IMG/VR virus record: IMGVR_UViG_3300021420_000008 | Span: 1-50,916 of that record | Direction: 5' to 3' (one strand) | DNA from: a virus | DNA: 50,916 nt | Shown: positions 6,701-28,524 of the stretch, piece after piece | Layout of the letters: each line of letters starts with the position of its first letter | Numbering within the stretch: position 1 is the first letter of the stretch | Notes under the pieces: model-generated | The model's database searches: none | Told to the model about the DNA's origin: nothing | The model's input: only the letters and a program-made list of their open reading frames with translations | Translations under genes and position numbers: made by a program

Positions 6701-8831
6701 GATCACCAAGTATCTGAAGAGCCTCGGAGCCAAGGAGGTGACAGATCAATTCGGTCACACCTGGCACGAAGTTTCTGTCCGCTCCGGCGTACCGAAGCGA
6801 GTCTTCGGCGCCTCCGATCCTCGCTATCTGGCCAAGCTCGCTGCTCTCGGCGTAGGGGCTGCCGCAGGAGCCTACTTCAGCACTCAGGACAAGAAGCTGA
6901 TCGGCGCCATTGAGGGGACTCTCGGTGCTGCTGCCCTCGTGATGTTCGGTCCAGGTCTCGCTGCTGTAGTGAAGGACATGCGAACACCTGATACGCGAAT
7001 CAGGATCACGCACATAGGAGATGATCACGAAGAGCTGGTCCACCGCCTCGCTATCCACACGATGCAGGAGCAAACTAAAGTTGAGAACCTGGTGCCCCGC
7101 ATTGCGGATCGCGAGCACCTCACGGCCTGGCTGCGAGGGGACAGGAGCAAGCCCCTGAATGCCGAGCAGCAGAAGGCCCTCCCGATCATCCGCCAGTGGT
7201 TCCAGATCGCGGGAGGTCTCCAGGGCCGGACGGCTAAGGCTGCTGCTTCGCGATTCGCCCGCTCCTCGGCGAATATGAAAGACATCAGCGCGGTGATGGG
7301 CGCCTTCGGTCACGCGGTGGCGAGGTCGATTGCTGACACCCGAATGCTCGATGCGCTGGAGACTACCAAGGATCCAGCAGGCAATGGCCTGATCACGAGT
7401 CCCCAGAAAGCTCCCGCGGGCTACGTCCACCTGGAGCATCCGCTCCTCTCCGGCTACAGCGTACATCCAGACATCGCGACCAGCCTGCGGCTGATGCTGG
7501 ACACTCCGCACCCCGTCGCGGCGAAGCGAGTTGCCTGGGCCCTGATGCAGGGGACGAAGCGAGCCCTCGTCTCTTTTAGCCTCTTCCACGCAACAGCCCT
7601 GAGCTTCGCTTCCCAAGCTGCTTCCAGCAACCCCGTCAAATTCATCAAGCTCTATGCTCAGGCCGTTGCTCCGCGAGTCTTCGGGGAGAACCTCCTCATC
7701 AAGGCTGTGCGCGAACAAGGTCATGGTGCTCCGATTATCGACGATGCGATAAAGGGCGGCCTGACCTGGAGCCTCGGACGTGAAACAGGCGGTGTGGAGG
7801 ATGTGGGCAATTTCTACGCTGGAATGCACGACATCGCGAAGCTGGCGGAGAGCGTCCCCGTCCTCGGTCAGCCCCTGGCCATCGCCACTCGGAGCCTCAT
7901 TAAGCTGAACCAGAAATTCGACGGCTTCATGTGGGATCGCCTGCATGCAGGGATGAAGCTTGATCTGTTCGCGGAGAAGTTTCAGCAACTCCTAGAGAAC
8001 AACGCCAGAGCGATTGCGAAGGATCCAAAGATCAAGGCCTTGTCCAGACGTCAGGCGGCGACGATTGCGGCGCAGTATTCAAATGCGATATTCGGAGGAC
8101 TGAACTGGCGCAGGGCGGCAGAGAGTGTTCAGAGCCGGCTGCTTCGTGACGTGACTTCGAAGGGCTTCTCCCCCTGGTCCCGCCGAATCGCGCAGGTGGC
8201 CTTGTTCGCTCCCGATTGGCTGGTGTCGACTGCAACACCGTGGTTCGTCGCTGCCTTTGGCAAAGGTACTGGCATCAAGGGAGTCCTCAATGCCCAGACG
8301 CTCGCCGACTTGCATCGTCAGTACTTGATCCGCTCCGGCCTCTTCTACCTCGTCGTCGGCGACGCTATCAACCACGCGATGTCAGGCCATCACATTTGGG
8401 ACAACAAGAATCCCCTACAGATCGACCTCGACCCTCAGGGCGAACGCCACATGATCTTCAACAAGCACCTGTTGGAGGTCCCCCACATGCTCCAGGATCC
8501 GACGAAGCAGATCCTTGGGAAGCTGAGCTTTCCTGTGAAGGAATCTCTCAACCAACTCTTCGGGACTGAGTATCTGTCCATCAAGACCGATCCCCGAACA
8601 GGGCAAGTCAGTGCTGGTCCTGCGATGGAAGGCTCCCGGCTCGGCCACGCAGCAAGGGGGCTGGAGCCGATTGCTGTGCAGCAAGGCTTCGGCGGCGGAG
8701 CCGATGCGGGGATGGCAGGCTTTTTTGGCCTCCCCGTCTATGGCCGGACGCGGGAGCAGAAGCTGCAGGATGCGGCGGAGCGCAGGCGGAAGCGAGTGCG
8801 GCAGCACATCGATCAATTGCTGAGCAGATGA
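3798..8831 (+). CDS. Giant internal virion or polyvalent protein (1677 aa)
   Basis: Starts at GTG one base after the previous stop. The N-terminal 90 residues are a Pro/Ala/Lys-rich linker with a repeated NPWERPWG / KPWERKWGE motif. Hydrophobic segments occur near 450-465 (GVVAGAALGATAAALAMA), 1017-1060 (AALGVGAAAGAYFS and GTLGAAALVMFGPGLAAVV) and about 1245-1270. A central part near 630-640 reads VEMQSDLQQ, a signature seen in large polyvalent phage proteins. The C-terminal 400 residues include an ATPWF/FGLPVYG-type region also common in such proteins. The family is known for giant ejected proteins; here the size, membrane segments and place after two ejection proteins support delivery into the host. 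No lytic transglycosylase motif is evident. Confidence 0.7.
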   Translation: MNPWERPWGSDQAASGAVAGADAPAADAPSTKVPTSVGKPWERKWGEAAKPEAKAEAKPSSPDLALASGGLKPGEVPEASAGEAAKLNVFTNFLSKESARPRFNPDTGEPEKPTFQDALESARLKSNFFSSVAEGFSKLGRKYAPKMPEALGGVDLDTIASRIRTGLATPAETFTYNNLLKDLVDGYKISAQEDHRGFAEALEGTLSAAIDNPGNFAGQLVAGLIQDPEMLALGGMGTGSKLAGMVKQYKKAAEAAGVGAEATAGGALMSAAGQYADRGEVRLPQLASEAVQIGLPMGMIHAVKGLRAKPGEEPATKPATEEDFPDSKSFKDYLETQVDEHVAKAQQRIEPGPLKPVEVATPERPFSDAKKWETSRLERIRDAAELRIAESKAKFESSKATDRRRRMKSLGTEEQGEHAQRLEDQLKQIKDELAERKGEGPSAGVVAGAALGATAAALAMANPDVRDKASTGAIVAAVFLGMPEGSRALSPVLKAAERSGRVLERLNERSPGKTEFKKVELLSEINRQDVPKAEKEALQRVIEQFPGESVKSADLVHHFQLETQNFELKPETTQRYAPLGLDRVDRGSYGVKAQTDVWKLPESWNIPAKGHFEAMGPNQYGHTRSFVEGDVRHVVEMQSDLQQHLAPMSEDQIKAENTSLSNINTGIEVFNDLNATIQASPTGLRSALSRWPAIWRGLGWEPRGAFFSWVNESTPSLEKTALQRLDPEGRKQEVSGAHEAISAVYDNKMKELQYNVKAKGYEQVKGYRIVPRKIQVKTGTGLRSEVVSDAWDVVVDYQPRDFMNREDSGPARQAIEHVDSGSILYNLVNQGWVPHDFGLTLRAAVETLNMKRDETSARLGNEPAKAELRERIRPIGEKIWPRRLIQEEIARASREGRDKIRFGDAEVVARIEGWQRRTAEWKNVRKTLLADPDISDTDRTTLEAEMAKLTDSFVSPKHQSIYDRYRDEITKYLKSLGAKEVTDQFGHTWHEVSVRSGVPKRVFGASDPRYLAKLAALGVGAAAGAYFSTQDKKLIGAIEGTLGAAALVMFGPGLAAVVKDMRTPDTRIRITHIGDDHEELVHRLAIHTMQEQTKVENLVPRIADREHLTAWLRGDRSKPLNAEQQKALPIIRQWFQIAGGLQGRTAKAAASRFARSSANMKDISAVMGAFGHAVARSIADTRMLDALETTKDPAGNGLITSPQKAPAGYVHLEHPLLSGYSVHPDIATSLRLMLDTPHPVAAKRVAWALMQGTKRALVSFSLFHATALSFASQAASSNPVKFIKLYAQAVAPRVFGENLLIKAVREQGHGAPIIDDAIKGGLTWSLGRETGGVEDVGNFYAGMHDIAKLAESVPVLGQPLAIATRSLIKLNQKFDGFMWDRLHAGMKLDLFAEKFQQLLENNARAIAKDPKIKALSRRQAATIAAQYSNAIFGGLNWRRAAESVQSRLLRDVTSKGFSPWSRRIAQVALFAPDWLVSTATPWFVAAFGKGTGIKGVLNAQTLADLHRQYLIRSGLFYLVVGDAINHAMSGHHIWDNKNPLQIDLDPQGERHMIFNKHLLEVPHMLQDPTKQILGKLSFPVKESLNQLFGTEYLSIKTDPRTGQVSAGPAMEGSRLGHAARGLEPIAVQQGFGGGADAGMAGFFGLPVYGRTREQKLQDAAERRRKRVRQHIDQLLSR

Positions 8832-10153
8832 AGATCCTCATCGTCGATCCAGCCTCGGCTGGCCTGAATTTCGCCCTTCGCTGCCAATGGGCGGGGCATG
8901 AGGTTAAGCTCTTCATTCCAAGGCTCTCGGAGGGCGAACTCTGCTTCGATGTGGGCGACGGCCTCGTGCCCAAGGTCCCGGAGTGGCAGCCGCACATGAA
9001 GTGGGCAGACCTGATCCTAGTAACAGGCAACGATAAGTACGTGAATGAGCTGGAGCCCTTCTTCCGCGAGGGATATCCCATTGTAGGTACGAATCGAGAG
9101 AGCGCTCAGCTGGAGCTGGATCGCGGAGTGGGGCAGGAAGCCCTTGAGAGTTGCGGCATCGACACCCTGGACTATGAGGAATTCACCTCCTATGAAAGAG
9201 CAATCGAATTTGTTAAGAAAGAGAAGAAGATCTATGTCTCCAAGCCCTGGGGAGGGGCGATTGACAAATCACTCAGCTACGTTCCCCAGTCCCGCGAAGA
9301 CCTCGTCTGCCGCCTCGAACGATGGAAGCAGGAGGGCCTTCGAGGCAAGTTCATCCTCCAGGAAAAGATCGACGGAACAGAGATGGCTGCGGGTACCTGG
9401 TTCGGGCCTGGAGGCTTTAGCCGCTATATCAACGAGACCTGGGAAGAGAAACGGTTCATGAACGACGGCTATGGGCCGAATACAGGGGAGATGGGCACGG
9501 TGCTGAGGTATACGAAGAAGTCCAAGCTCTTCGAGGAGGTTGTGAGGCCCCTAGAGCCTCGCCTTCAGGAATTGGGCTTCGTCGGCAACGTTGATGTGAG
9601 CTGCATGATCGACCGAAGCGGCCGCCCGTGGCCGATGGAATTCACCATGCGCTTCGGCTGGCCGGCCTTCAATCTCATGATGTCGCTACACCAGGGAGAT
9701 CCCGCAGAGTGGCTCCTTGCTCTGCTGGAGGGTCGCGACGTGCTCGAATGCTCCCGCAGCCTGTGCTGCGGCGTGCTGATGACCTTAGGCGATTACCCCT
9801 GGTGCAATTGGACTCACGATCAATGCTCTGAGTGGCCCATCAGGGGCCTCTCCGCGGAGGTGATGGATCATGTGGCACTCACTTGTGTTAAAATGGGCCG
9901 CGCTCCGACAGAAAGTGGCAGCCGCATCGAGGACAGGGATTGCCTCGTTACGGCTGGTTCTTACGTTCTGGTCGCCTACGGACAAGGAAGAACCGTCGAA
10001 GCTTCCCGACAAGCCGCCTATAAAGTAGCTGATCAGATCTCCTGGCCACCACACATCAACTTGAGGACCGACATTGGCTGTCGGCTGGAGAAGGGCTTGA
10101 AGGAGCTTCATCGCCACGGCTATGCAACGGATGTAGAGTACGATGGGAACTAA
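8828..10153 (+). CDS. PurD-like ATP-grasp ligase
   Basis: A 441-residue protein whose ATG overlaps the preceding stop (ATGA). It follows the plan of phosphoribosylamine-glycine ligase: an N-terminal nucleotide-like fold (MKILIVDPASAGLNFALRC), a GTNRESAQLELDR segment where PurD has GPTAGAAQLEGSK, an ATP-grasp domain with YVSKPWGG and QEKIDGTEMAAG, then GPNTGEMGT corresponding to PurD GPNTGGMG, and MEFTMRFGWPAF corresponding to EFNCRFGDPE. ATP-grasp enzymes join a carboxylate to an amine through an acyl phosphate. The first glycine-rich loop of PurD (GGREHA) is not conserved, so the substrates need not be phosphoribosylamine and glycine. It is placed among virion genes, not with nucleotide metabolism genes. 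Confidence 0.8.
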   Translation: MKILIVDPASAGLNFALRCQWAGHEVKLFIPRLSEGELCFDVGDGLVPKVPEWQPHMKWADLILVTGNDKYVNELEPFFREGYPIVGTNRESAQLELDRGVGQEALESCGIDTLDYEEFTSYERAIEFVKKEKKIYVSKPWGGAIDKSLSYVPQSREDLVCRLERWKQEGLRGKFILQEKIDGTEMAAGTWFGPGGFSRYINETWEEKRFMNDGYGPNTGEMGTVLRYTKKSKLFEEVVRPLEPRLQELGFVGNVDVSCMIDRSGRPWPMEFTMRFGWPAFNLMMSLHQGDPAEWLLALLEGRDVLECSRSLCCGVLMTLGDYPWCNWTHDQCSEWPIRGLSAEVMDHVALTCVKMGRAPTESGSRIEDRDCLVTAGSYVLVAYGQGRTVEASRQAAYKVADQISWPPHINLRTDIGCRLEKGLKELHRHGYATDVEYDGN

Positions 10154-15163: not shown

Positions 15164-16378
15164 TCACGTTTTCTGCGTAGGCTCCGGATCCACTCCAACA
15201 TAGCGCAGTAGCCTCCCCTGCCCATTTATCTCCATCCGGACCTTCCCCAGCTGCAGCACTCCCATCAGGATCTGCTCGAACTCGTGGAAATTCGGGAACT
15301 GGTGGTGGATTTCATGATAGGCCTCTTCGTAAGTGCAGGTCCGATGTCGCTTCACGAATTCGACCAAGCGATCTGCTCCCATTGCGGCCTCATTCTTGCC
15401 AATCAGGGCAAAGACCTTCTCGAAGTCCGGCTCCACGCTGATCAGCATGCCATTGGCGTCCTCGAAGTCCTCAATCTCCAGCTGCATTGAGTCCCGTCGG
15501 GAGGCGGCCAGAATCATCGCGAGCTTACACAAGTGAGTTTGCTTCCTCGCCAGATAGTTCCGCATGATCGGTGAGCTGCACTCCGGGTACACCTTCTGCC
15601 ACAGATCCTCATACCAGATCTTCTCCCACTCTCTCGCTTCTGGCGTCTCCGTGAAGGGCCCCACGAGGTTGAGGCTGATATGCTCCAGATCACTGACGAG
15701 TGCCCTCCGCACCATCTCAAAGTCCTCCGCCGCGACCTCCTGGCTCGGATCATAGATCAGCCTCGCCTTCTCTTCTCGGTACACAAATATACAGCGTGAG
15801 GTAAAACCGCCCCCAACGGCAAGCCGCGGCATATTCTCTGCTATTGCGGGAGGAGTAGTGCAGCCCAGAAGGGTTATCCAGGGCGCTTCGACGATGTCCT
15901 TCCCATTCATCTTCGTGCTCTTGTCGAACCGTCTGCGACCATCCCACAAAGTGATGAAGAGGTTCACCATATCCCTGTCCTGCATGTTCAACAATAGCCC
16001 CAACTCGCTTGACACTAAGGTGATTGCCGACATCGGGTAGTGTTCGTCCTGATAGAGGAAGCTTTCGCAGCTCCCCGCAAAAGCTGTAACGAGCGACTGC
16101 CAGGTGATCGAATCTGGACCGAAATTGATTCCAGGCACTTCCCGCAACATGTCCAGCGCCAAATCGGCCGTAGAAGACTTGGTCACCACTCCCGGCGGAG
16201 CCACTAATATCACATAGAAAGACGGATACCATTTGAAGGTTCTTCGGTCGATCCAGACCTTTCGCCGCAGGGCTCCGCTGAGGGCGCATACCGCACTCCA
16301 AAAGTGCATAATGCCAGGGGCCTCAGTCACGGAGGCCCACTCGACATAGGTCTTCAACCAGTCCTCTAATTGTCTCAC
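15164..16378 (-). CDS. DUF3987-like P-loop protein, putative helicase
   Basis: A 404-residue protein starting at GTG in a GTGA overlap with the polymerase gene. The N-terminus (WLKTYVEWASVTEAPGIMHF, then SALSGALRRKVWID region) and the segment FYVILVAPPGVVTKSSTA form the start of a P-loop NTPase of the DUF3987 kind; the Walker A loop is degenerate, with Thr in place of the second Gly before Lys-Ser. Later WITLLGCTTPP and GGFTSRCIFVYREEK match conserved segments of this family. These proteins often sit next to phage polymerases and are thought to act as replicative helicases or primase-helicase relatives. The linkage with the polymerase supports a replication role. Confidence 0.7.
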   Translation of the reverse strand: MRQLEDWLKTYVEWASVTEAPGIMHFWSAVCALSGALRRKVWIDRRTFKWYPSFYVILVAPPGVVTKSSTADLALDMLREVPGINFGPDSITWQSLVTAFAGSCESFLYQDEHYPMSAITLVSSELGLLLNMQDRDMVNLFITLWDGRRRFDKSTKMNGKDIVEAPWITLLGCTTPPAIAENMPRLAVGGGFTSRCIFVYREEKARLIYDPSQEVAAEDFEMVRRALVSDLEHISLNLVGPFTETPEAREWEKIWYEDLWQKVYPECSSPIMRNYLARKQTHLCKLAMILAASRRDSMQLEIEDFEDANGMLISVEPDFEKVFALIGKNEAAMGADRLVEFVKRHRTCTYEEAYHEIHHQFPNFHEFEQILMGVLQLGKVRMEINGQGRLLRYVGVDPEPTQKT

Positions 16379-18885
16379 TTACAATCGCCCCACGAAATCC
16401 TCGAGGTCTTGACTCCAACCGGAATCACAAGAGGATCTTCGTAGGGGATTGTAATGCTCGACAGCTTGCGGAGTTTTTCAATGCTTGCGTCATGACGATG
16501 ACTAGGAAATTGCCCTGCGAGGGAGTCGTGCACCTGCAGTAGGACTTCAATCTCTGGTGCCTGCTCCCAGAGGTTCATCCAGGCTCTGTTGATGGCACAA
16601 CCCACTGTGCTCTGAGGTATCCAGGCAAGCCACTCTGGAAGTCCACCTTCGAGTCGATCGAAAATATACCAGCGATAGCCGAATGGATTCTGAACGAATC
16701 TGTGTCGAACAACCCATTCTTCGGTTCTTCGTTGCCATGCCAAGATGCCAGGATGAGCTCCAAACCAGAGAGCTTGTGCTCTCTCGACAGTTGCGACAGT
16801 CTCTCCCAGCTTTGGGGCGAGACCTCTAGCTGTAGCACCATAGTCAGTTGCATGCACGAACCTCTTTGCAAATTCCCGTCCGCCTCGCATCCTGTCGCGA
16901 TAGTCCCAATAACACCTCGGGCCGCAGGAACAGGCCTCTTCCCTGGAGTGACGCTCAATCAGCTCTTCCAGGGGAGGAGCCTCGCGTCCTGCGAGCACAA
17001 AGGCGTTGAGGAGATGAAGATCAACGCCCAAGCGAAGGGCAGCCTGTAGCATGCTATCGCGAGCCTCCCACACGACAACCTGGAGATCCGCTCGGTCGAG
17101 GTCCAGGTCAAAAAATGTGAATCCTGAATCAGGCCCAAACATAGTGCGTATATTCGGGAGCTGGAGCTTGGTTCCCCTCTTTTCAGCCTTGCTAACAGAC
17201 ATCGATTTGTCAGACGGAATGTTCTGGAGATTGGCTCCAGAACCAAAGGCGTTTTCTGAGGAGGACAAACGATAACTATACGGGGCAGATTTTCCACTCG
17301 TAGAGCCTCCGATGTTGTAAGAGCAGCGCATTCGATTATCAACGTCCAGCCGCTTGGTGAGCATTTCCATGAACTTGCCCAGCGTGCGGAGGTCAGCAAT
17401 CGCGTCGGTGAGGGGCTTCAGCAGGGGCTCCCGCTCCCCGATCTTGGTCAGCGCCTCATCGTTGCAGGTGACGTGAGCGGGCGCATTCTTCGTCGCTCGG
17501 GTCATAATCGCAGGCTGGGCGAAGTCGCGATAAAAGAGCGTCGTCATCTGCGGGTAGGAGCCGATGTTCAGCTCGTGGCCGAGGACCTCATGCAGCATGC
17601 CCTGGCCCGAAGCGATCGCCTCTTGTGTCTCCATAATTAGCTTATCTCGCTGTTCCGTCCTGACACGGATTCCGCGGAGCATCGCTTTGAGAACGGGGTA
17701 AAAGAGACGCTGCTGAAAATCGTGCACTTCCCCCAGGCCGAGTTTTTCGACGGAGCGAAGCTCGGCCTCCCCGCATTCTCGGGTGTAGACGCAGTCTTCG
17801 AGGTTATAACTCCAAAGCTGCTCTTCCCCCATCTTTGGATCCCAGTTCTTCCCCTCATCCTTCCAGTAGACATAGTGCCGTGCGTACATCGAGGCCTGGA
17901 AGTACAGGGCCTTGGGGAGCTGGCAAAACAGAGTGTGCTGCGAGATCATCGTGTCCTGGACACCGTGCGGGATAAAGTGCCAGTGGCGATGAATGTACTG
18001 CGCATCATAGAGGCCGTTCTGCCATCTCACCTTCACCCGAGGATTAGTAAGTAGCCGGAAGAGGAGCCAGATGATATGAGCTTCCTCGTCGAGAGACCAA
18101 TATCCTGAAGCTCGCTCGACGCACATGAAGGGTATTGACACTCCTTCTGTGAGGCTCCAGGACAGCCCACAACAGGCAATGTGACCAGCCCTGGTTTCAA
18201 GGTCGAGTTCGATCCACAGATCATCAGTCTGGGCTCGATCAATAAGTGCTTGAAGAGTCTGCACTGTTTGATTGAAGGTCGGCCGGATGAGGAATCGCCA
18301 CGAGGGTTTGTCATAGGTTCTTGTCTCACTTTCTCTCCGCGCGCGGCGAAGGTCGCTTACAGCAATGGCTCGCTGATCCCACTGACGCAAGATGGCAGCG
18401 GGGTGGATGGTAGGGATTAGCTTGGGAGAGTCGGCTCCGTCGAGCTGGAGGTGGCTGCCGCGCCACTTCATAATCCCCTTGCGGCCCGTTAGCGCCCAGA
18501 GGGGGTAGCCCCCGCAGCCGACAATGAGGTTAGGCTTAACAGCGGCAATTTCCTGCTTCAGATGCTCAAGCCCAGCGATGAACAGCGGCGCGACCTTGGT
18601 GTCGCGGAAGGGGATGAAATCCTTGGGACAATCCCGTCCCTTCCAGTACTTGGCCTTCTTGTCGAAGATCCAGGCTGCGAGTTCATTCTCTGGCGGGCGA
18701 GCGTTTACTAAGTTGCTGACGTAGATGTCGGAGCGCATCATGCCAGCCTCTTGAAGCATGCGATTCAGCTCCAGACCAGAGGCGCCGACGAAGGGGATGC
18801 CTTTGCGCTCCTCCTCCGCGCCCCAGGCTTCGCCGACGAGCATCACCTTCGCGGGGATTGGGCCGTCGCCAGAGCGGAGATGCAT
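16375..18885 (-). CDS. Uracil-DNA glycosylase / family A DNA polymerase fusion
   Basis: An 836-residue protein. Residues 1-180 are a uracil-DNA glycosylase superfamily domain of family 4 type (VMLVGEAWGAEEERKGIPFV and IPTIHPAAILRQW). Residues about 215-380 are a 3'-5' exonuclease with ELDLET (Exo I), WQNGLYDAQY (Exo II) and YNLEDCVYTRE (Exo III). Residues 380-836 are a PolA polymerase: motif A FFDLDLDRADLQVV, motif B REFAKRFVHATDYGAT, motif C LLQVHDSLAGQF. Motif A and C differ from the usual DYSQIELR and HDE: the second acidic residue in motif C is Ser. The glycosylase Fe-S cysteines of family 4 are not evident. This is the only replicative polymerase in the window. Confidence 0.9.
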   Translation of the reverse strand: MHLRSGDGPIPAKVMLVGEAWGAEEERKGIPFVGASGLELNRMLQEAGMMRSDIYVSNLVNARPPENELAAWIFDKKAKYWKGRDCPKDFIPFRDTKVAPLFIAGLEHLKQEIAAVKPNLIVGCGGYPLWALTGRKGIMKWRGSHLQLDGADSPKLIPTIHPAAILRQWDQRAIAVSDLRRARRESETRTYDKPSWRFLIRPTFNQTVQTLQALIDRAQTDDLWIELDLETRAGHIACCGLSWSLTEGVSIPFMCVERASGYWSLDEEAHIIWLLFRLLTNPRVKVRWQNGLYDAQYIHRHWHFIPHGVQDTMISQHTLFCQLPKALYFQASMYARHYVYWKDEGKNWDPKMGEEQLWSYNLEDCVYTRECGEAELRSVEKLGLGEVHDFQQRLFYPVLKAMLRGIRVRTEQRDKLIMETQEAIASGQGMLHEVLGHELNIGSYPQMTTLFYRDFAQPAIMTRATKNAPAHVTCNDEALTKIGEREPLLKPLTDAIADLRTLGKFMEMLTKRLDVDNRMRCSYNIGGSTSGKSAPYSYRLSSSENAFGSGANLQNIPSDKSMSVSKAEKRGTKLQLPNIRTMFGPDSGFTFFDLDLDRADLQVVVWEARDSMLQAALRLGVDLHLLNAFVLAGREAPPLEELIERHSREEACSCGPRCYWDYRDRMRGGREFAKRFVHATDYGATARGLAPKLGETVATVERAQALWFGAHPGILAWQRRTEEWVVRHRFVQNPFGYRWYIFDRLEGGLPEWLAWIPQSTVGCAINRAWMNLWEQAPEIEVLLQVHDSLAGQFPSHRHDASIEKLRKLSSITIPYEDPLVIPVGVKTSRISWGDCK

Positions 18886-23367: not shown

Positions 23368-23686
23368 AGGGTGCCTTCCCCACCAGTCCATGCTTGGCCT
23401 TGAAGATCACCAGAAAGCGCTCCAGTTCTGCATTGAGCTGACTCATCCGCTTCATGTCATTCTCTGTTGGATCGTGCCCTGGATCGAGGAAGCTCATCAC
23501 GCTGGAGAAGAGATGCATCGCTCCGGAGAAGAAAGCGATGCGGCATTCATCTCGCTGGATTTGCGGTGCTTCTGGAGAGAGTACCAGGCGTTCGTAGCTG
23601 ACCCAACCCGCTTCCATCAACAAGCCACGATCGGCTAGCTCCTTGGTGACGACATCGGTCAGAGCCTTGAGTTTCGGATCAATCAC
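23351..23686 (-). CDS. Small helical unknown protein (111 aa)
   Basis: The GTG start at 23686 overlaps the nuclease stop as GTGA. The protein is helical (LKALTDVVTKELADRGLLME) with a central hydrophobic stretch (ECRIAFFSGAMHLFSSVMSF) and a long amphipathic helix to the end (MKRMSQLNAELERFLVIFKA). No metal-binding or nucleotide-binding motif. It lies between the nuclease and the Sak4-like ATPase and is likely co-translated with the nuclease. Function unknown. Confidence 0.65.
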   Translation of the reverse strand: MIDPKLKALTDVVTKELADRGLLMEAGWVSYERLVLSPEAPQIQRDECRIAFFSGAMHLFSSVMSFLDPGHDPTENDMKRMSQLNAELERFLVIFKAKHGLVGKAPYGKNT

Positions 23687-24588
23687 AGCAACGTCTCCTT
23701 CCGTGTGAGCGGATCCCACTTCCGCTTTTCGAAGTCGATCTCCAGCCAGGGCTGGGCGTCCTCACTCATGCAGACCTTGCGGAACATACACCCCCCGAAG
23801 GCCGAGCATGCATCATCCAGATTGTAGTCCCAGTATCCCTCCTTCCAGCACTGGATCATCCGCTCGATGTCCCGCACAACCTGCTTGAGCCATCTGTCGA
23901 TCATGAACTGCGGCCGGTAGGTCAGTGCCTGAAGAGTGTCATACTTAGTCTTGAGAACGCTGATTCCGCGGATAAGAAATCCCTGAATTGGGATACCTGC
24001 CTGTTGGCAGCCCCAGCAATATCCGGTGAACTGGGCACGGAGATCCCACTGACGGGGCCAGGTGGCGCCGAGCTGGGTTGTGGTCTTATCATCTTCGCCG
24101 TAGACTGCGCCGGCAAATTCCGTGACTTGATCCATCCGGCCGCAGTAGATGATTGGACTGAGTGTCTGGGGATGGAGGAGCGGAAGCGGTTCTGCGAAGG
24201 AGAACTCAATCCCCTTGCGATCGGGGCCGATCTGGCTGGGGATCGCCGTCTCTTCGGCGAGGGGGTAACGGTCAAGGTAGTACTCCAGTGCGCCCATCAT
24301 TCGGGTAAGGGACTTCGGGGAGTCATCCGGACATTGGAAGTCACCGTATTCTTCGAGGAGAGCCTTCATTCCCTTCGCCGCTGCGGTGTTTGGATCCTCG
24401 CCCTGTTCGAAGAAGGACTTGCGGGCGACTTCCAGACCCTTGGCATAGGCCCCTCCGGCGTGGAGGTGGACGTTGGGTGTGCGAGGTTTCCAGTGCAGGA
24501 GATGCTCCAGATAAAATTTTTGCGGACAACTCACGAAGGTTGAGCGGAGTGTGTTATCGATCACTTCGGGAAAAGGGAGCGCTGTCAT
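23683..24588 (-). CDS. RecB/Cas4-like PD-(D/E)XK nuclease
   Basis: A 301-residue protein from an ATG with AGGAG upstream. The N-terminus DNTLRSTFVSCPQKFYLEHL is the entry helix of Cas4/RecB-family nucleases with its conserved Cys; then GGAYAKGLEVARKSFFEQG. The active-site strand is around YCGRMDQVTEF and VYGEDDKTTTQLG (D, then D-x-K). The C-terminus has SAFGGCMFRKVC with DDACSAF before it, a three-Cys group that with the N-terminal Cys can hold an iron-sulfur cluster. Such enzymes are 5' or 3' exonucleases that make ends for recombination, in keeping with the Sak4-like ATPase nearby. Confidence 0.85.
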   Translation of the reverse strand: MTALPFPEVIDNTLRSTFVSCPQKFYLEHLLHWKPRTPNVHLHAGGAYAKGLEVARKSFFEQGEDPNTAAAKGMKALLEEYGDFQCPDDSPKSLTRMMGALEYYLDRYPLAEETAIPSQIGPDRKGIEFSFAEPLPLLHPQTLSPIIYCGRMDQVTEFAGAVYGEDDKTTTQLGATWPRQWDLRAQFTGYCWGCQQAGIPIQGFLIRGISVLKTKYDTLQALTYRPQFMIDRWLKQVVRDIERMIQCWKEGYWDYNLDDACSAFGGCMFRKVCMSEDAQPWLEIDFEKRKWDPLTRKETLL

Positions 24589-24764
24589 TTTGCTGCTCCT
24601 AATTGTGCTTCCAGCTCCTTGATCCGTGCCTCGGCTACGGCGAGGTCGCACATCGGTATTGTGTAGGCTGGTGGGTCGTTAAAGCGACCGAAGTCCTCAT
24701 ACCCTCGCACCGAGATACACCAGCCTTCAGCGTTGCGCCAGCCTGTGATGGGGAGATCGGTCAT
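24585..24764 (-). CDS. Small unknown protein (59 aa)
   Basis: Starts at an ATG that overlaps the preceding stop as ATGA, and its end overlaps the nuclease start in the same way. The protein reads TDLPITGWRNAEGWCISVRG, then YEDFGRFNDPPAYTIPMCDL, and ends in a short coiled helix (AEARIKELEAQLGAAK). No known family. Its position makes it a link in the continuously coupled early operon. Confidence 0.65.
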   Translation of the reverse strand: MTDLPITGWRNAEGWCISVRGYEDFGRFNDPPAYTIPMCDLAVAEARIKELEAQLGAAK

Positions 24765-24997
24765 TGCGACTCCATCGGCCGCCACTCCCCGCACCACAGC
24801 CTCGGTTCCGTATTCGGCCACCCTCCGCAAGCAGTAGGCTGGAGACTGATCCCCTTGGGATCGAGGACATTCTGCTGCTGGGGCAACACCAACCACTGGA
24901 GCTGCGGCGGATGGCGCAAGCAGACGTAGCCGGCGCCGAGATCCTGGGGCCGGCCGACGTAATAGCAGTTCGAGCAGGCTTGCGCGGAGCGATTCAC
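24761..24997 (-). CDS. Small Cys-rich zinc-binding protein
   Basis: A 78-residue protein with an ATGA overlap at both ends. It contains CSNCYYVGRPQDL, then CLRHPPQLQ, later CGGWP and WCGEWRP, a five-Cys/His arrangement of a small zinc-binding domain found in many phage and prophage early proteins that share the ending W-C-G-E-W. Its role in them is not known. The spacing and Trp content make a structural zinc site likely. Confidence 0.7.
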   Translation of the reverse strand: MNRSAQACSNCYYVGRPQDLGAGYVCLRHPPQLQWLVLPQQQNVLDPKGISLQPTACGGWPNTEPRLWCGEWRPMESQ

Positions 24998-25296
24998 AGG
25001 TTGGCCTCGATCCAGTCAGCAATTTCGGCGAAGGAGCGACCGCTGTCGTTCATCGAGGCGATGTACTGAGCATTCTTGGGCGACAGTACCCAGTGAAAAC
25101 AATGCGGGCTCACACCGAGGACGTACTGCAATAGCCCCAGCGCGCAGAACCGATTCGCGCCGGTTGTGAGGGCGCCTTTAACCTGAACGAAGTTCCCTTG
25201 GCGGAGCACGCGGAGCCATTCCAGCTTCATCGTTTCCGGCATCGCGTGTGCGGGCTGAGCTTCGGCGAACAGTACTGGCTCGTTCATGTTAGACAT
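24994..25296 (-). CDS. Conserved small early protein (100 aa)
   Basis: Preceded by GAGGAGAAG. Residues 30-60 (VRLRQGNFVQVKGALTT area and RFCALGLLQYVLG) and the C-terminal SMNDSGRSFAEIADWIEANL match a widespread family of short bacterial and phage proteins in which a CALG-type segment is followed by NDxGxxFxxIAxxIE. Function is not known to me. It follows a stem-loop and the 40-aa double-glycine peptide gene. Confidence 0.65.
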   Translation of the reverse strand: MSNMNEPVLFAEAQPAHAMPETMKLEWLRVLRQGNFVQVKGALTTGANRFCALGLLQYVLGVSPHCFHWVLSPKNAQYIASMNDSGRSFAEIADWIEANL

Positions 25297-25321
25297 CTTC
25301 TTCTCCTCTGCTGGTTGTAAT

Positions 25322-25341
25322 CGGCCCCCTCGCGAGGGCCG
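25322..25341 (-). other. GC-rich stem-loop between peptide gene and next gene
   Basis: The sequence from 25322 to 25341 forms a stem with arms CGGCCC and GGGCCG around an eight-base loop. On the minus strand it lies seven bases after the stop of the 40-aa peptide gene and before the ribosome binding site of the next gene. No T-run follows, so it is not a standard terminator; it may protect the peptide message or mark a processing site. Confidence 0.5.
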
Positions 25342-25347
25342 CTTGGA

Positions 25348-25470
25348 TCAGTGATCAAAAATGATCGGATCAGGTTGAGCGGAACTACCAGTACCACCGG
25401 TAACTTCCTGGAGCTGCTCTGGTTCCAACTCGACCAGTTCTACCACCTCGACGACTTGTACATCGTTCAT
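25348..25470 (-). CDS. 40-aa peptide with double-glycine leader-like sequence
   Basis: A 40-residue frame with a strong ribosome binding site (AAGGAGAA, eight bases before the ATG). The first 26 residues are acidic and Val/Leu-rich (VVEVVELVELEPEQLQ), ending LQEVTGG; the last 14 (TGSSAQPDPIIFDH) are small and polar. This is the layout of a double-glycine leader, as in class II bacteriocins and other exported peptides, where cleavage follows GG. No peptidase-transporter gene is in the window, so processing would need host machinery. A second frame from 25549 overlaps it but is Arg-rich and lacks a binding site of its own. The gene is well supported; the leader interpretation is tentative. Confidence 0.6.
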   Translation of the reverse strand: MNDVQVVEVVELVELEPEQLQEVTGGTGSSAQPDPIIFDH

Positions 25471-25545
25471 GATGTGGTTCTCCTTCAACGCCCTGTGTTG
25501 CCCTGCACCGGAGCGGGCGGATCCGGGGCAGGTCGATCGACTGAG

Positions 25546-26739
25546 TCATGGCTGATTCCCGGTGGGCTTGCGTCGTTTGTGCCAGTCGTGTAATTGAGCG
25601 GCTGTTTGCGGGCTTTCCTCCAGCTCGTGCTCGAAGGCCAAGGCGGCGCGAGCAGCATCAAACTCAACCGTCTTGCGGTCTGCAACTCGCACAACCCCTT
25701 CTAATGCAGATCGCAACTGTTCGATCTTTGCATCCTTCTCCCTCACCAACCTGTCGTGGATCTCGCGGGGGATGGCGTCGGCTAACTTCTCGCGCAGTTC
25801 ATCGCGATCGTGCAGCAATGCTTCGGCCCATTCGTTCGGCGAGCGGGCTTCATTATCGCGTGTCCAGCCGCTTGCGCAGATCGAGCCAATGTCGCGCCAT
25901 TGTTCCTCAAGCTCCGCGATCTTCCCAAGCAAGACGGTGTAATGCGGCTCCGGGCCCTTGCCGGCTAGCGGTTGAGAGCCAACCTGCTGGGGGTCGTCAA
26001 TCTGGTGCTCATCTCCAGATAGCTCACTGGCCCCCAGCAAGCCCCGAGTTTCCTCGGGCTGCCGCGTCTCTCGACCGGCATTTTCTTGATTCGATGAGGC
26101 TGGCGGTTGAGGGGCGGCGTACAGCGGCTGCCACTTGCACGGCATACTGGGCGGCTCAATCGTGCTTGGATCATAGCTGCTATATGTAGTTGCGCCGTAA
26201 TTTCCGCAATAGCGCCACGCTACCGGCTTCGTGTCCGGGGAAGGTTGAGGGACGGCGTCAAATAGATACCTGCGGCTAACTGCGGCCGGATTCTCCGGTT
26301 CGCTGGCATAGCCCAGGTGCTCATTACCGTTAGCGAACTTCTCGATGTAGGCCACCGCCTTCGCCTCCTTGATCTGTGCCAGAGCGCGCTCATCTGGCGG
26401 TGTGCTGTGAAATTCGCAAGCCCTACGTAACCGCTCAATCTCCGCATCCTTCTCCGCGATCAGCACGGCGGCGGAGGGAGGGACGGCGTATATGGCAGTT
26501 GTAGGATTTAGTCTGCTACCGTGTCTGAACATTAAAACGCTAATCGACAGACAATCTGGATCTTTCAATTTGTCAAATTCTGATGTTAGAGCGTGTGCCA
26601 CCGGCTCCGGCTGCTGCGCAAGGGCGGCGTCGATGCGGGCTATTAGCTCGGCATCCGGCTTGCTCCCGACGCCAACGAACACATAGCTATCGAGCCTGTC
26701 GCGCGCCTTCCGCAGCAGTTCGCGCAATGGGTCAGTCAT
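25546..26739 (-). CDS. Ea22-like early protein
   Basis: A 397-residue protein. The segments KPVAWRYCGN and WQPLYAAPQPP are the typical signature of Ead/Ea22-like early proteins of lambdoid and related phages, in which PVAW and PLY(A)AP mark short modular repeats. A second copy is degraded (EPVAHALTS, TAIYAVPP). Helical charged linkers join them (AEKDAEIERLRRACEFH, VREKDAKIEQLRSALEGV), and the C-terminal part includes ASGWTRDNEARSPNEWAEAL. These proteins vary in length by module exchange. Function in infection is unknown. Its start overlaps the end of the Cys/His-rich gene. Confidence 0.7.
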   Translation of the reverse strand: MTDPLRELLRKARDRLDSYVFVGVGSKPDAELIARIDAALAQQPEPVAHALTSEFDKLKDPDCLSISVLMFRHGSRLNPTTAIYAVPPSAAVLIAEKDAEIERLRRACEFHSTPPDERALAQIKEAKAVAYIEKFANGNEHLGYASEPENPAAVSRRYLFDAVPQPSPDTKPVAWRYCGNYGATTYSSYDPSTIEPPSMPCKWQPLYAAPQPPASSNQENAGRETRQPEETRGLLGASELSGDEHQIDDPQQVGSQPLAGKGPEPHYTVLLGKIAELEEQWRDIGSICASGWTRDNEARSPNEWAEALLHDRDELREKLADAIPREIHDRLVREKDAKIEQLRSALEGVVRVADRKTVEFDAARAALAFEHELEESPQTAAQLHDWHKRRKPTGNQP

Positions 26740-26899
26740 GGCTCACTCTCTCAACGCTGTACACAGCGCAAGGACATCTTGGGATCAGACATCCAGTTTT
26801 ATCGTGATTCCAGTGAGGGTGATGGCATCTGCCGCAGCCGTAACCTTTGCCATATCGCCATCGGTTAAACGCGTAGTACAGGCAATTGAATAGGCTCAC
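26732..26899 (-). CDS. 55-aa Cys/His-rich zinc-binding protein
   Basis: The GTG start overlaps the preceding stop as GTGA and the end overlaps the Ea22-like start by eight bases, leaving no gap on either side. The protein carries GKGYGCGRCHHPHWNHD, then CLIPRCPC: six Cys and four His within 32 residues, enough for one or two zinc sites. The first 15 residues are aromatic (LFNCLYYAFNRWRYG). The frame fills exactly what would otherwise be an empty 157-base gap. Function unknown; a nucleic-acid or protein-binding role is possible. Confidence 0.7.
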   Translation of the reverse strand: MSLFNCLYYAFNRWRYGKGYGCGRCHHPHWNHDKTGCLIPRCPCAVYSVERVSHD

Positions 26900-27306
26900 G
26901 TCCCCTCCCCCAGCTTAGGCGCGGCGGCGAGCATGTATTCGATCATCTGCCTCGTCTGTGTTGCGGTCAGAAGATTTGTGCCAACCGGCCACTGCCGCGC
27001 GTAACCCATTGCATCTGGTTTGCGCCCATCAAAACTGATACCGCAGTCGGGCGCGAAGTCTTTCGGCAGAGGCCAAAGCAAGAAGCGCTCTACCATTTGA
27101 TCTACGAACTGATTGGGGTCGTAGACCTCAGGCGGATTCGACGTAGCGAAAGCGGCTCCGTCATCGTGCACCCACCCGGGCCGCTGGCGGGCGAGGGCGA
27201 TGAGGCGTACAAAGCTGTCGAGTGACATCGCAGCGACATAACCATCAGTCGCGTACACTTCCTCTGTCGCTAGCAGCCTCAGCGCCTCCTCGTGCTCTGG
27301 TGTCAT
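26896..27306 (-). CDS. Conserved phage protein with WP-GTNLLT motif
   Basis: A 136-residue protein with an ATGA overlap with the previous gene. Residues 72-95 (VERFLLWPLPKDFAPDCGIS) and 108-130 (WPVGTNLLTATQTRQMIEYM) are a pair of segments that recur together in many phage early proteins. The N-terminal half is helical (EHEEALRLLATEEVY, SLDSFVRLIALARQR). No catalytic motif is evident. Function unknown; it is part of the coupled early operon. Confidence 0.7.
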   Translation of the reverse strand: MTPEHEEALRLLATEEVYATDGYVAAMSLDSFVRLIALARQRPGWVHDDGAAFATSNPPEVYDPNQFVDQMVERFLLWPLPKDFAPDCGISFDGRKPDAMGYARQWPVGTNLLTATQTRQMIEYMLAAAPKLGEGT

Positions 27307-27512
27307 GATATCCCCAGCTCCTTCTCCAGCTCCTCGAAGCTCGGTACGGCAGCCTTGACCTTCTTGCGCTTCGCCGAGTCACTCGCCTGCGCTGCGGCGG
27401 CTCGCCCCTCGCGGAGGATGGCGGTGGACTGCTTTAACTCCTCCACCGTCAGCGTCCCGTCCAGGGCTTTGGCCCTCCAAACGGCTACTTGAGCTTGCAC
27501 TTCAGGTGTCAT
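27303..27512 (-). CDS. Small early protein (69 aa)
   Basis: Starts at an ATG with GGAAGGT upstream. The helix VAVWRAKALDGTLTVEELKQ followed by AILREGRAAAAQASDS resembles a family of small phage proteins with WRAKAxDGTLTxEE. The rest is basic then acidic (AKRKKVKAAVPSFEELEKEL). No known function. Confidence 0.65.
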   Translation of the reverse strand: MTPEVQAQVAVWRAKALDGTLTVEELKQSTAILREGRAAAAQASDSAKRKKVKAAVPSFEELEKELGIS

Positions 27513-27685
27513 GGTGCTACCTTCCATAACCAAGTAATAGTGCCCGCTATCATTAACAAGAATCCTGTCAGCAGGCAGAACACACCGATGTTGCAGATCC
27601 AGTCAGGAATAACTAGCTGACTGCTCAGATCGAGTTCCATGACTGTATAGCCTACCAAGAAGAGGGAGAGTCCCACAGCCATCAT
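27509..27685 (-). CDS. Small two-helix membrane protein (58 aa)
   Basis: Starts at an ATG overlapping the preceding stop as ATGA. Two hydrophobic helices are visible, MAVGLSLFLVGYTVMELDL and ICNIGVFCLLTGFLLMIAGT, with a short connecting segment (SSQLVIPDW) and the ending ITWLWKVAP. Function unknown. Early phage membrane peptides sometimes act in superinfection exclusion or inhibit host functions, but nothing here shows this. Confidence 0.65.
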   Translation of the reverse strand: MMAVGLSLFLVGYTVMELDLSSQLVIPDWICNIGVFCLLTGFLLMIAGTITWLWKVAP

Positions 27686-28335: not shown

Positions 28336-28524
28336 TCAATCCCCTTCCTCTCCGTCCTCTTCCTCCTCTTCCTCCTCATCTGGATCCGTCTGCAGCTCAA
28401 TCACCTCCGATCCGTAAACGGCTCCTGTGATGGGCCGCAGATCATCGGCGTCTGCGTCATAGGCCTTTACGGATGAGAGTGCAGGATAGCGAGAGAGAAG
28501 GGCGATCAATTCCGCTGCGGTCAT
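28336..28524 (-). CDS. Small acidic protein (62 aa)
   Basis: Preceded by AAGGAG. The protein has a helical start (TAAELIALLSRYPALSSVKA), a beta part (LRPITGAVYGSEVIELQTD) and a pure acidic tail (PDEEEEEEEDGEEGD). Acidic small proteins of phages sometimes mimic DNA, but the tail here is short. The Rho-independent terminator for the upstream gene lies directly before its ribosome binding site, so its expression must depend on read-through, or on a promoter I cannot see. Confidence 0.65.
   Translation of the reverse strand: MTAAELIALLSRYPALSSVKAYDADADDLRPITGAVYGSEVIELQTDPDEEEEEEEDGEEGD

What the first reader, a model, noticed from the sequence alone, without database searches (positions are those of the whole stretch)
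25348..25470. Double-glycine leader-like peptide gene in the early region
A 40-residue gene with a strong binding site encodes an acidic, Leu/Val-rich leader ending LQEVTGG and a 14-residue tail. The leader form is that of exported class II bacteriocin or signalling peptides cleaved by C39 peptidase-transporters. A phage carrying such a peptide without transporter could exploit a host exporter, either for competition or for communication. A stem-loop follows directly.
Basis: partly seen in the sequence, partly recalled or inferred. Interest (0 to 1): 0.7.

Follow-up and report, generated by a model that had tools for sequence, protein, structure and literature searches.

The report
Phage gene for host-exported peptide
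A phage carries a tiny, evolutionarily conserved gene for a peptide bearing the "double-glycine" label that bacterial C39 exporters cut and secrete, although no such exporter was found in the phage genome, so it probably borrows the host's to release a 14-residue peptide of unknown use.

Summary
The 40-codon gene is real. It lies on the minus strand (25348-25470) and encodes MNDVQVVEVVELVELEPEQLQEVTGG|TGSSAQPDPIIFDH. One homologue was found, in another phage (IMGVR_UViG_3300012683_000015): 78% identical, GG and QPDPIIF kept, silent sites saturated but replacement sites not (pS 0.79, pN 0.14, p=3e-9). So it is translated and selected as a protein. Against a profile of 37 leaders collected beside real C39 transporters in Rhizobiales and Burkholderiales, its leader scores in the middle of the true ones; random sequence and non-C39 bacterial DNA gave nothing comparable. 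The genome looks complete (127-bp terminal repeat) and no C39 or related ABC exporter was detected in it. The gene sits in an accessory insert that relatives lack. Other phage contigs without detectable C39, two sharing its capsid genes, carry GG peptides with different tails. The bacteriocin option is weak: the tail is short, Cys-free and not cationic. A lasso-peptide reading was tested and rejected. Export and function are not shown.

The parts
25348..25470 (-). CDS of the 40-aa double-glycine-leader precursor peptide
   Evidence: homologue with pS 0.79 versus pN 0.14, Fisher p 2.7e-9
25393..25470 (-). 26-residue leader MNDVQVVEVVELVELEPEQLQEVTGG; Val-4, Leu-7, Leu-12, Gly-2, Gly-1
   Evidence: profile score 19.7 bits, in the middle of 37 leaders from C39 neighbourhoods; contact positions from PMC6363468
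25351..25392 (-). 14-residue tail (presumed mature peptide) TGSSAQPDPIIFDH; QPDPIIF (25357-25377) invariant in the homologue
   Evidence: alignment A5
25480..25486 (-). Shine-Dalgarno sequence GAAGGAG; the 24 nt CAGGGCGTTGAAGGAGAACCACAT are identical in the homologue
25322..25341 (-). 8-bp GC-rich hairpin with GCGA loop after the stop; no U-tract, not conserved
24652..27302 (-). accessory insert of small genes (59, 78, 100, 40, 397, 55 and 136 aa; the 59-aa gene starts inside the insert's edge) between exonuclease and the conserved 76-aa gene; the two flanks are close neighbours in relatives (8 nt apart in L015)

Best explanation
A phage accessory gene in the minus-strand early/replication gene block encodes a precursor peptide. 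[quoted passage not shown] Shown: real gene, selected as protein, C39-type leader, no C39 or related ABC exporter detected in an apparently complete genome, accessory location. Inferred: recognition, cleavage and export by a host exporter. Most likely use, inferred only: the tail acts as a short secreted signal or surface-acting peptide of the infected cell, because it is too short, Cys-free and non-cationic for a classic bacteriocin, and native C39 neighbourhoods also hold precursors with 7-residue tails.
For: Homologue with strong purifying selection, GG and tail conserved (a GG-free pattern scan found the same single relative). Leader profile from C39-adjacent peptides: 19.7 bits, rank 23 if placed among 37 true leaders, next best in 617 kb phage DNA 14.6, none in random sequence. 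Homologue 20.0 bits. Contact residues match the LahT150 complex, where the C-terminal 13 leader residues suffice (PMC6363468). AF2 helix at residues 17-23 (low confidence). 127-bp terminal repeat; no C39 or C39-ABC exporter. C39 present in 22 of 121 Rhizobiales and 37 of 120 Burkholderiales genomes sampled. Native short tails in L250.
Against: No homologue beside a C39 gene; only one homologue known, so the family is tiny. Position -8 is Gln, the minority choice (3 of 37 real leaders). Known GG families match only below cut-off, and TIGR01847 does not report it. Host unknown, so presence of an exporter in it is untested. No processing data.
Confidence: 0.58

Rival explanations
1. It is a small acidic cytoplasmic phage protein that binds some host target; the GG-leader look is coincidence and nothing is cleaved or exported.
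For: Small acidic early proteins are common in phages. A phage related by its polymerase (L030) has a 75-aa acidic protein with a leader-like ELTQDDLAEVQGG, 14.6 bits, whose weak relative in the window (28336-28524) lacks GG, and other phage families carry such a GG by chance (MDKTVKLELTIEQLNVVMGG|LVKLP).
Against: Score in the range of true leaders and higher than the L030 case; leader and GG conserved with only silent changes in the EVTGGT codons; no known family matches.
Confidence: 0.24
2. The leader is a decoy: it occupies or jams the host's C39 exporter to stop export of the host's own peptides, and the tail matters little.
For: Strong C39 leader without its own transporter.
Against: The tail QPDPIIF is invariant and under selection, not expected if only the leader acted.
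Confidence: 0.08
3. Exported class II bacteriocin/microcin that kills competitors of the infected host.
For: GG leader; a prophage-region bacteriocin gene without ABC or immunity genes is reported in Xylella (PMC11885251).
Against: 14-residue tail without Cys, net -2 in the window, not amphipathic-cationic; no immunity gene recognised; no lysogeny genes recognised.
Confidence: 0.08
4. Lasso peptide precursor (Thr-2, Gly1, ring to Asp9) matured by host enzymes.
For: Thr-2, Gly1 and Asp9 fit in the window sequence read as TG|GTGSSAQPD (region, own knowledge of lasso rules).
Against: In the homologue a 3-residue deletion moves the Asp to position 6, outside the 7-9 residue rings known; no Transglut_core3 (lasso B) in the genome.
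Confidence: 0.02

Closest known systems
Double-glycine-leader substrates of C39 peptidase ABC exporters (PCAT/AMS)
   Same: GG cleavage motif; Val-4, Leu-7, Leu-12; acidic helical leader; SD-led small gene; profile score in range of native peptides of soil Proteobacteria
   Different: no C39 gene nearby or in the genome; encoded by a phage; tail unlike any collected here
Prophage-region class II bacteriocin of Xylella fastidiosa (PMC11885251)
   Same: bacteriocin-type gene among phage genes without ABC or immunity genes
   Different: our tail is 14 residues and not bacteriocin-like; sequences not compared here
CTB family bacteriocin NF038167 (leader only)
   Same: leader aligns: E 0.086, homologue 0.092, L337 peptide 0.0019
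   Different: far below the 32-bit cut-off; tails unrelated
Arbitrium (AimP) phage communication peptides
   Same: idea of a short phage peptide released from cells (own knowledge)
   Different: arbitrium uses another export route and a receptor controlling lysogeny; no integrase, repressor or receptor recognised here

Membership tests
GG-leader peptide (C39 substrate) | GG/GA/GS at -2,-1 with hydrophobic -4, -7, -12 | tested here: met
   V-4, L-7, L-12, GG
GG-leader peptide (C39 substrate) | leader statistically like native leaders | tested here: met
   19.7 bits among 37 true leaders (3.9 to 33.1)
GG-leader peptide (C39 substrate) | GG conserved in homologues | tested here: met
   one homologue, GG kept with silent changes; GG-free scan finds only that record
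GG-leader peptide (C39 substrate) | cognate C39 transporter encoded nearby | tested here: not met
   none in window or in the homologue's contig; many real substrates have it, orphan ones would not
GG-leader peptide (C39 substrate) | cleavage after GG and export | not testable with these tools
   needs biochemistry
Class II bacteriocin / microcin | mature peptide of roughly 25-60+ residues, usually cationic or Cys-containing, with immunity gene | tested here: not met
   14 residues, net -2, no Cys; no immunity gene recognised
Lasso peptide | Gly/Cys/Ala/Ser1 to Asp/Glu at 7-9 | tested here: not met
   fits window (Asp9) but Asp is at 6 in the homologue
Lasso peptide | B-protein peptidase (Transglut_core3) gene | tested here: not met
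   no match in the genome
CTB family bacteriocin (NF038167) | score over curated cut-off 32 bits | tested here: not met
   13 bits
Arbitrium-type phage communication | peptide plus cognate receptor controlling lysogeny | tested here: inconclusive
   no integrase or repressor recognised among the ORFs scanned; receptor not sought directly

The most novel reading that the evidence does not exclude
Phages of Gram-negative bacteria repeatedly carry 'orphan' GG-leader peptides that use host C39 exporters to release short peptides which coordinate infection or act on neighbouring cells: a phage signalling or manipulation route distinct from arbitrium.
Probability: 0.25. Interest if true: 0.85.

Novelty: new variant of a known kind. 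Interest (0 to 1): 0.6.

Why it matters
If the peptide is exported, a phage uses a bacterial peptide-secretion machine it does not encode, a cheap way for an infected cell to signal to, or act on, the cells around it. The leader profile and the further C39-less phage contigs with GG peptides make the idea testable across phages.

Tried and rejected
Pattern searches for close relatives (MNDVQVV, VELEPEQ, PEQLQEV) failed in IMG/VR and GTDB genomes; tblastn in phages and plasmids gave nothing., 47 used an alignment with invented filler rows only to force a pattern; no result rests on it. Weak tblastn hits in 796 bacterial genomes look like pieces of larger or unrelated frames. 22 polymerase-related phage records lack the gene (some are fragments). 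TIGR01847 searches were uninformative: the control rang nowhere at E 0.01. Lasso reading considered and rejected. The overlapping + strand ORF 25351-25593 is rejected because changes against the homologue fall on silent positions of the minus-strand frame. Literature: RiPP-phage co-expression work (PMC11118758) links host RiPPs to phages rather than phage-encoded precursors, as far as the section read shows; the GG bacteriocins in S. mitis B6 (PMC2828477) are in bacteriocin/competence clusters.

Full report
What is there. The feature is on the minus strand: ATG 25470, stop 25348, SD GAAGGAG 9 nt upstream. Product: MNDVQVVEVVELVELEPEQLQEVTGGTGSSAQPDPIIFDH. The window is a viral record of 50,916 bases with a 127-bp direct terminal repeat, so it looks like a complete phage genome: DNA polymerase, Sak4, primase, methyltransferase, terminase, portal, head closure. 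No integrase or repressor was recognised.

Is it a gene? The decisive evidence is a homologue found by a pattern search (SD, ATG, EL...[EQ]h..V.GG) of IMG/VR: MDEKVVEVVELVELTSDQLSEVTGG|TTQPDPIIFNHRTFNR in IMGVR_UViG_3300012683_000015 (L288, L335). Twenty-four nucleotides around the SD are identical. Silent sites are saturated (19.5 of 24.8 changed) while replacement sites are not (11.5 of 83.2), p=2.7e-9. That search required GG, so GG retention there is ascertained; but a second search with GG-free patterns (QPDPIIF; D[VE][QK]VVEVV) found only the same record, and the codons of EVTGGT differ only silently. In that phage the gene is wedged in an operon: its start overlaps the ORF before and its stop overlaps the next start as ATGA. 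That phage has RecT, NinB and queuine tRNA-ribosyltransferase genes and shares only a few genes with the window, mainly at the tail end. Similarity continues about 60 nt upstream of the SD, which in the other phage is the end of the upstream ORF, so the peptide probably moved as a cassette (inference).

Is the leader a C39 leader? I collected small SD-led ORFs with GG around full-length C39 transporters from Rhizobiales and Burkholderiales and built a 15-position profile from 37 of them after dropping self-inconsistent ones. The window peptide scores 19.7 bits and its homologue 20.0, in the middle of the true leaders (3.9 to 33.1, leave-one-out). In 617 kb of phage DNA the next is 14.6 (L030) and then 7.7. 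In 1.45 Mb of other bacterial DNA the only hit of 14.5 or more is L117, a C39 neighbour that was in the set by oversight and is itself one of the training peptides; about 7.4 Mb of Markov sequence gives none. Shuffling the leader with GG fixed reaches the score in 0.09%. [quoted passage not shown] An AF2 single-sequence model puts its only helix at residues 17-23, low confidence.

No transporter. Neither the C39 Pfam model nor a profile of about 40 full-length C39-ABC exporters finds anything in the window. The homologue's contig has only a weak 9-bit match (E 0.14). C39 is present in 22 of 121 Rhizobiales and 37 of 120 Burkholderiales genomes sampled, so exporters are available in a minority of plausible hosts. 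The host is unknown.

Where it sits. In polymerase-related phages the exonuclease (window 23683-24651) and the 76-aa gene (27303-27533) are close neighbours, 8 nt apart in L015; in the window about 2.65 kb of small genes, with this one, lies between them. So it is accessory.

Wider pattern. The same scan found GG peptides in other phage contigs in which the held parts show no C39: L337 (terminase 37%, portal 38%, capsid 49% to the window; MEQKAPEVEVVELSLDELDLVGGG|QGMTVL, near endolysin), L338 (portal, and capsid 51%, to the window), L339 and L341 (next to an endolysin-like gene), L343 (on a contig with terminase), L347 (near an integrase). The scan listed 80 stretches, which is probably its limit; 34 held an in-frame motif by my re-scan. 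It also returned a likely false-positive class (MDKTVKLELTIEQLNVVMGG|LVKLP and relatives, about ten contigs), so the motif alone is not proof. Prophage-derived contigs may contain host DNA, and some contigs were only partly fetched.

What it does. The tail is 14 residues, Cys-free, net -2 (about +1 in the homologue), with invariant QPDPIIF: not a classic bacteriocin. A Burkholderiales C39 neighbourhood holds GG precursors with 7-residue tails (L250, DVTVVIG and DVTVVIA). I favour an exported short signal or surface-acting peptide, but this is inference. A decoy of the exporter is possible; the conserved tail argues against a pure decoy. Lasso maturation is rejected because the would-be ring Asp moves from position 9 to 6 in the homologue and no lasso B protein is encoded.

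Stem-loop. Real (25322-25341), but without U-tract, not better than shuffles (z=-0.99), and missing in the homologue.

Noticed in passing
8828-10153: 441-aa protein similar to PurD (phosphoribosylamine-glycine ligase, E 5e-25 but far below the equivalog cut-off), conserved in polymerase-related phages and at 37% in the homologue's phage; possibly a nucleotide or DNA modification enzyme.
   Followed up: partly
16375-18885: The N-terminal ~180 residues of the phage DNA polymerase match many bacterial and archaeal proteins that look like family 4 uracil-DNA glycosylases (own judgement), as if a glycosylase-like domain were fused to the polymerase.
   Followed up: no
L030:1674-1901: 75-aa acidic ORF with ELTQDDLAEVQGG (TIGR01847 E 0.0074, profile 14.6 bits) just upstream of an AAA/Sak4-like gene; either a second GG peptide in this phage group or a chance match, since a weak window relative (28336-28524) lacks GG.
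   Followed up: partly
L337:531-623: Phage contig sharing terminase, portal and capsid genes with the window carries a 30-aa GG peptide with a 6-residue tail (QGMTVL), whose leader (VEVVEL) resembles the window's.
   Followed up: partly
L250:1972-2512: Two neighbouring GG precursors with 7-residue tails DVTVVIG and DVTVVIA in the neighbourhood of a Burkholderiales C39 transporter: very short native GG peptides.
   Followed up: no
24761-24997: 78-aa Cys-containing ORF (CSNCYYV...CLRHPP), possibly a small zinc ribbon, overlapping the stop of the 100-aa gene; no match in the phage collection.
   Followed up: no
25385-25549: 54-aa ORF overlapping the start of the peptide gene in another frame contains QGVEGEPH, shared with the end of the upstream ORF in the homologue's phage: probably a relic carried with the cassette.
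   Followed up: no
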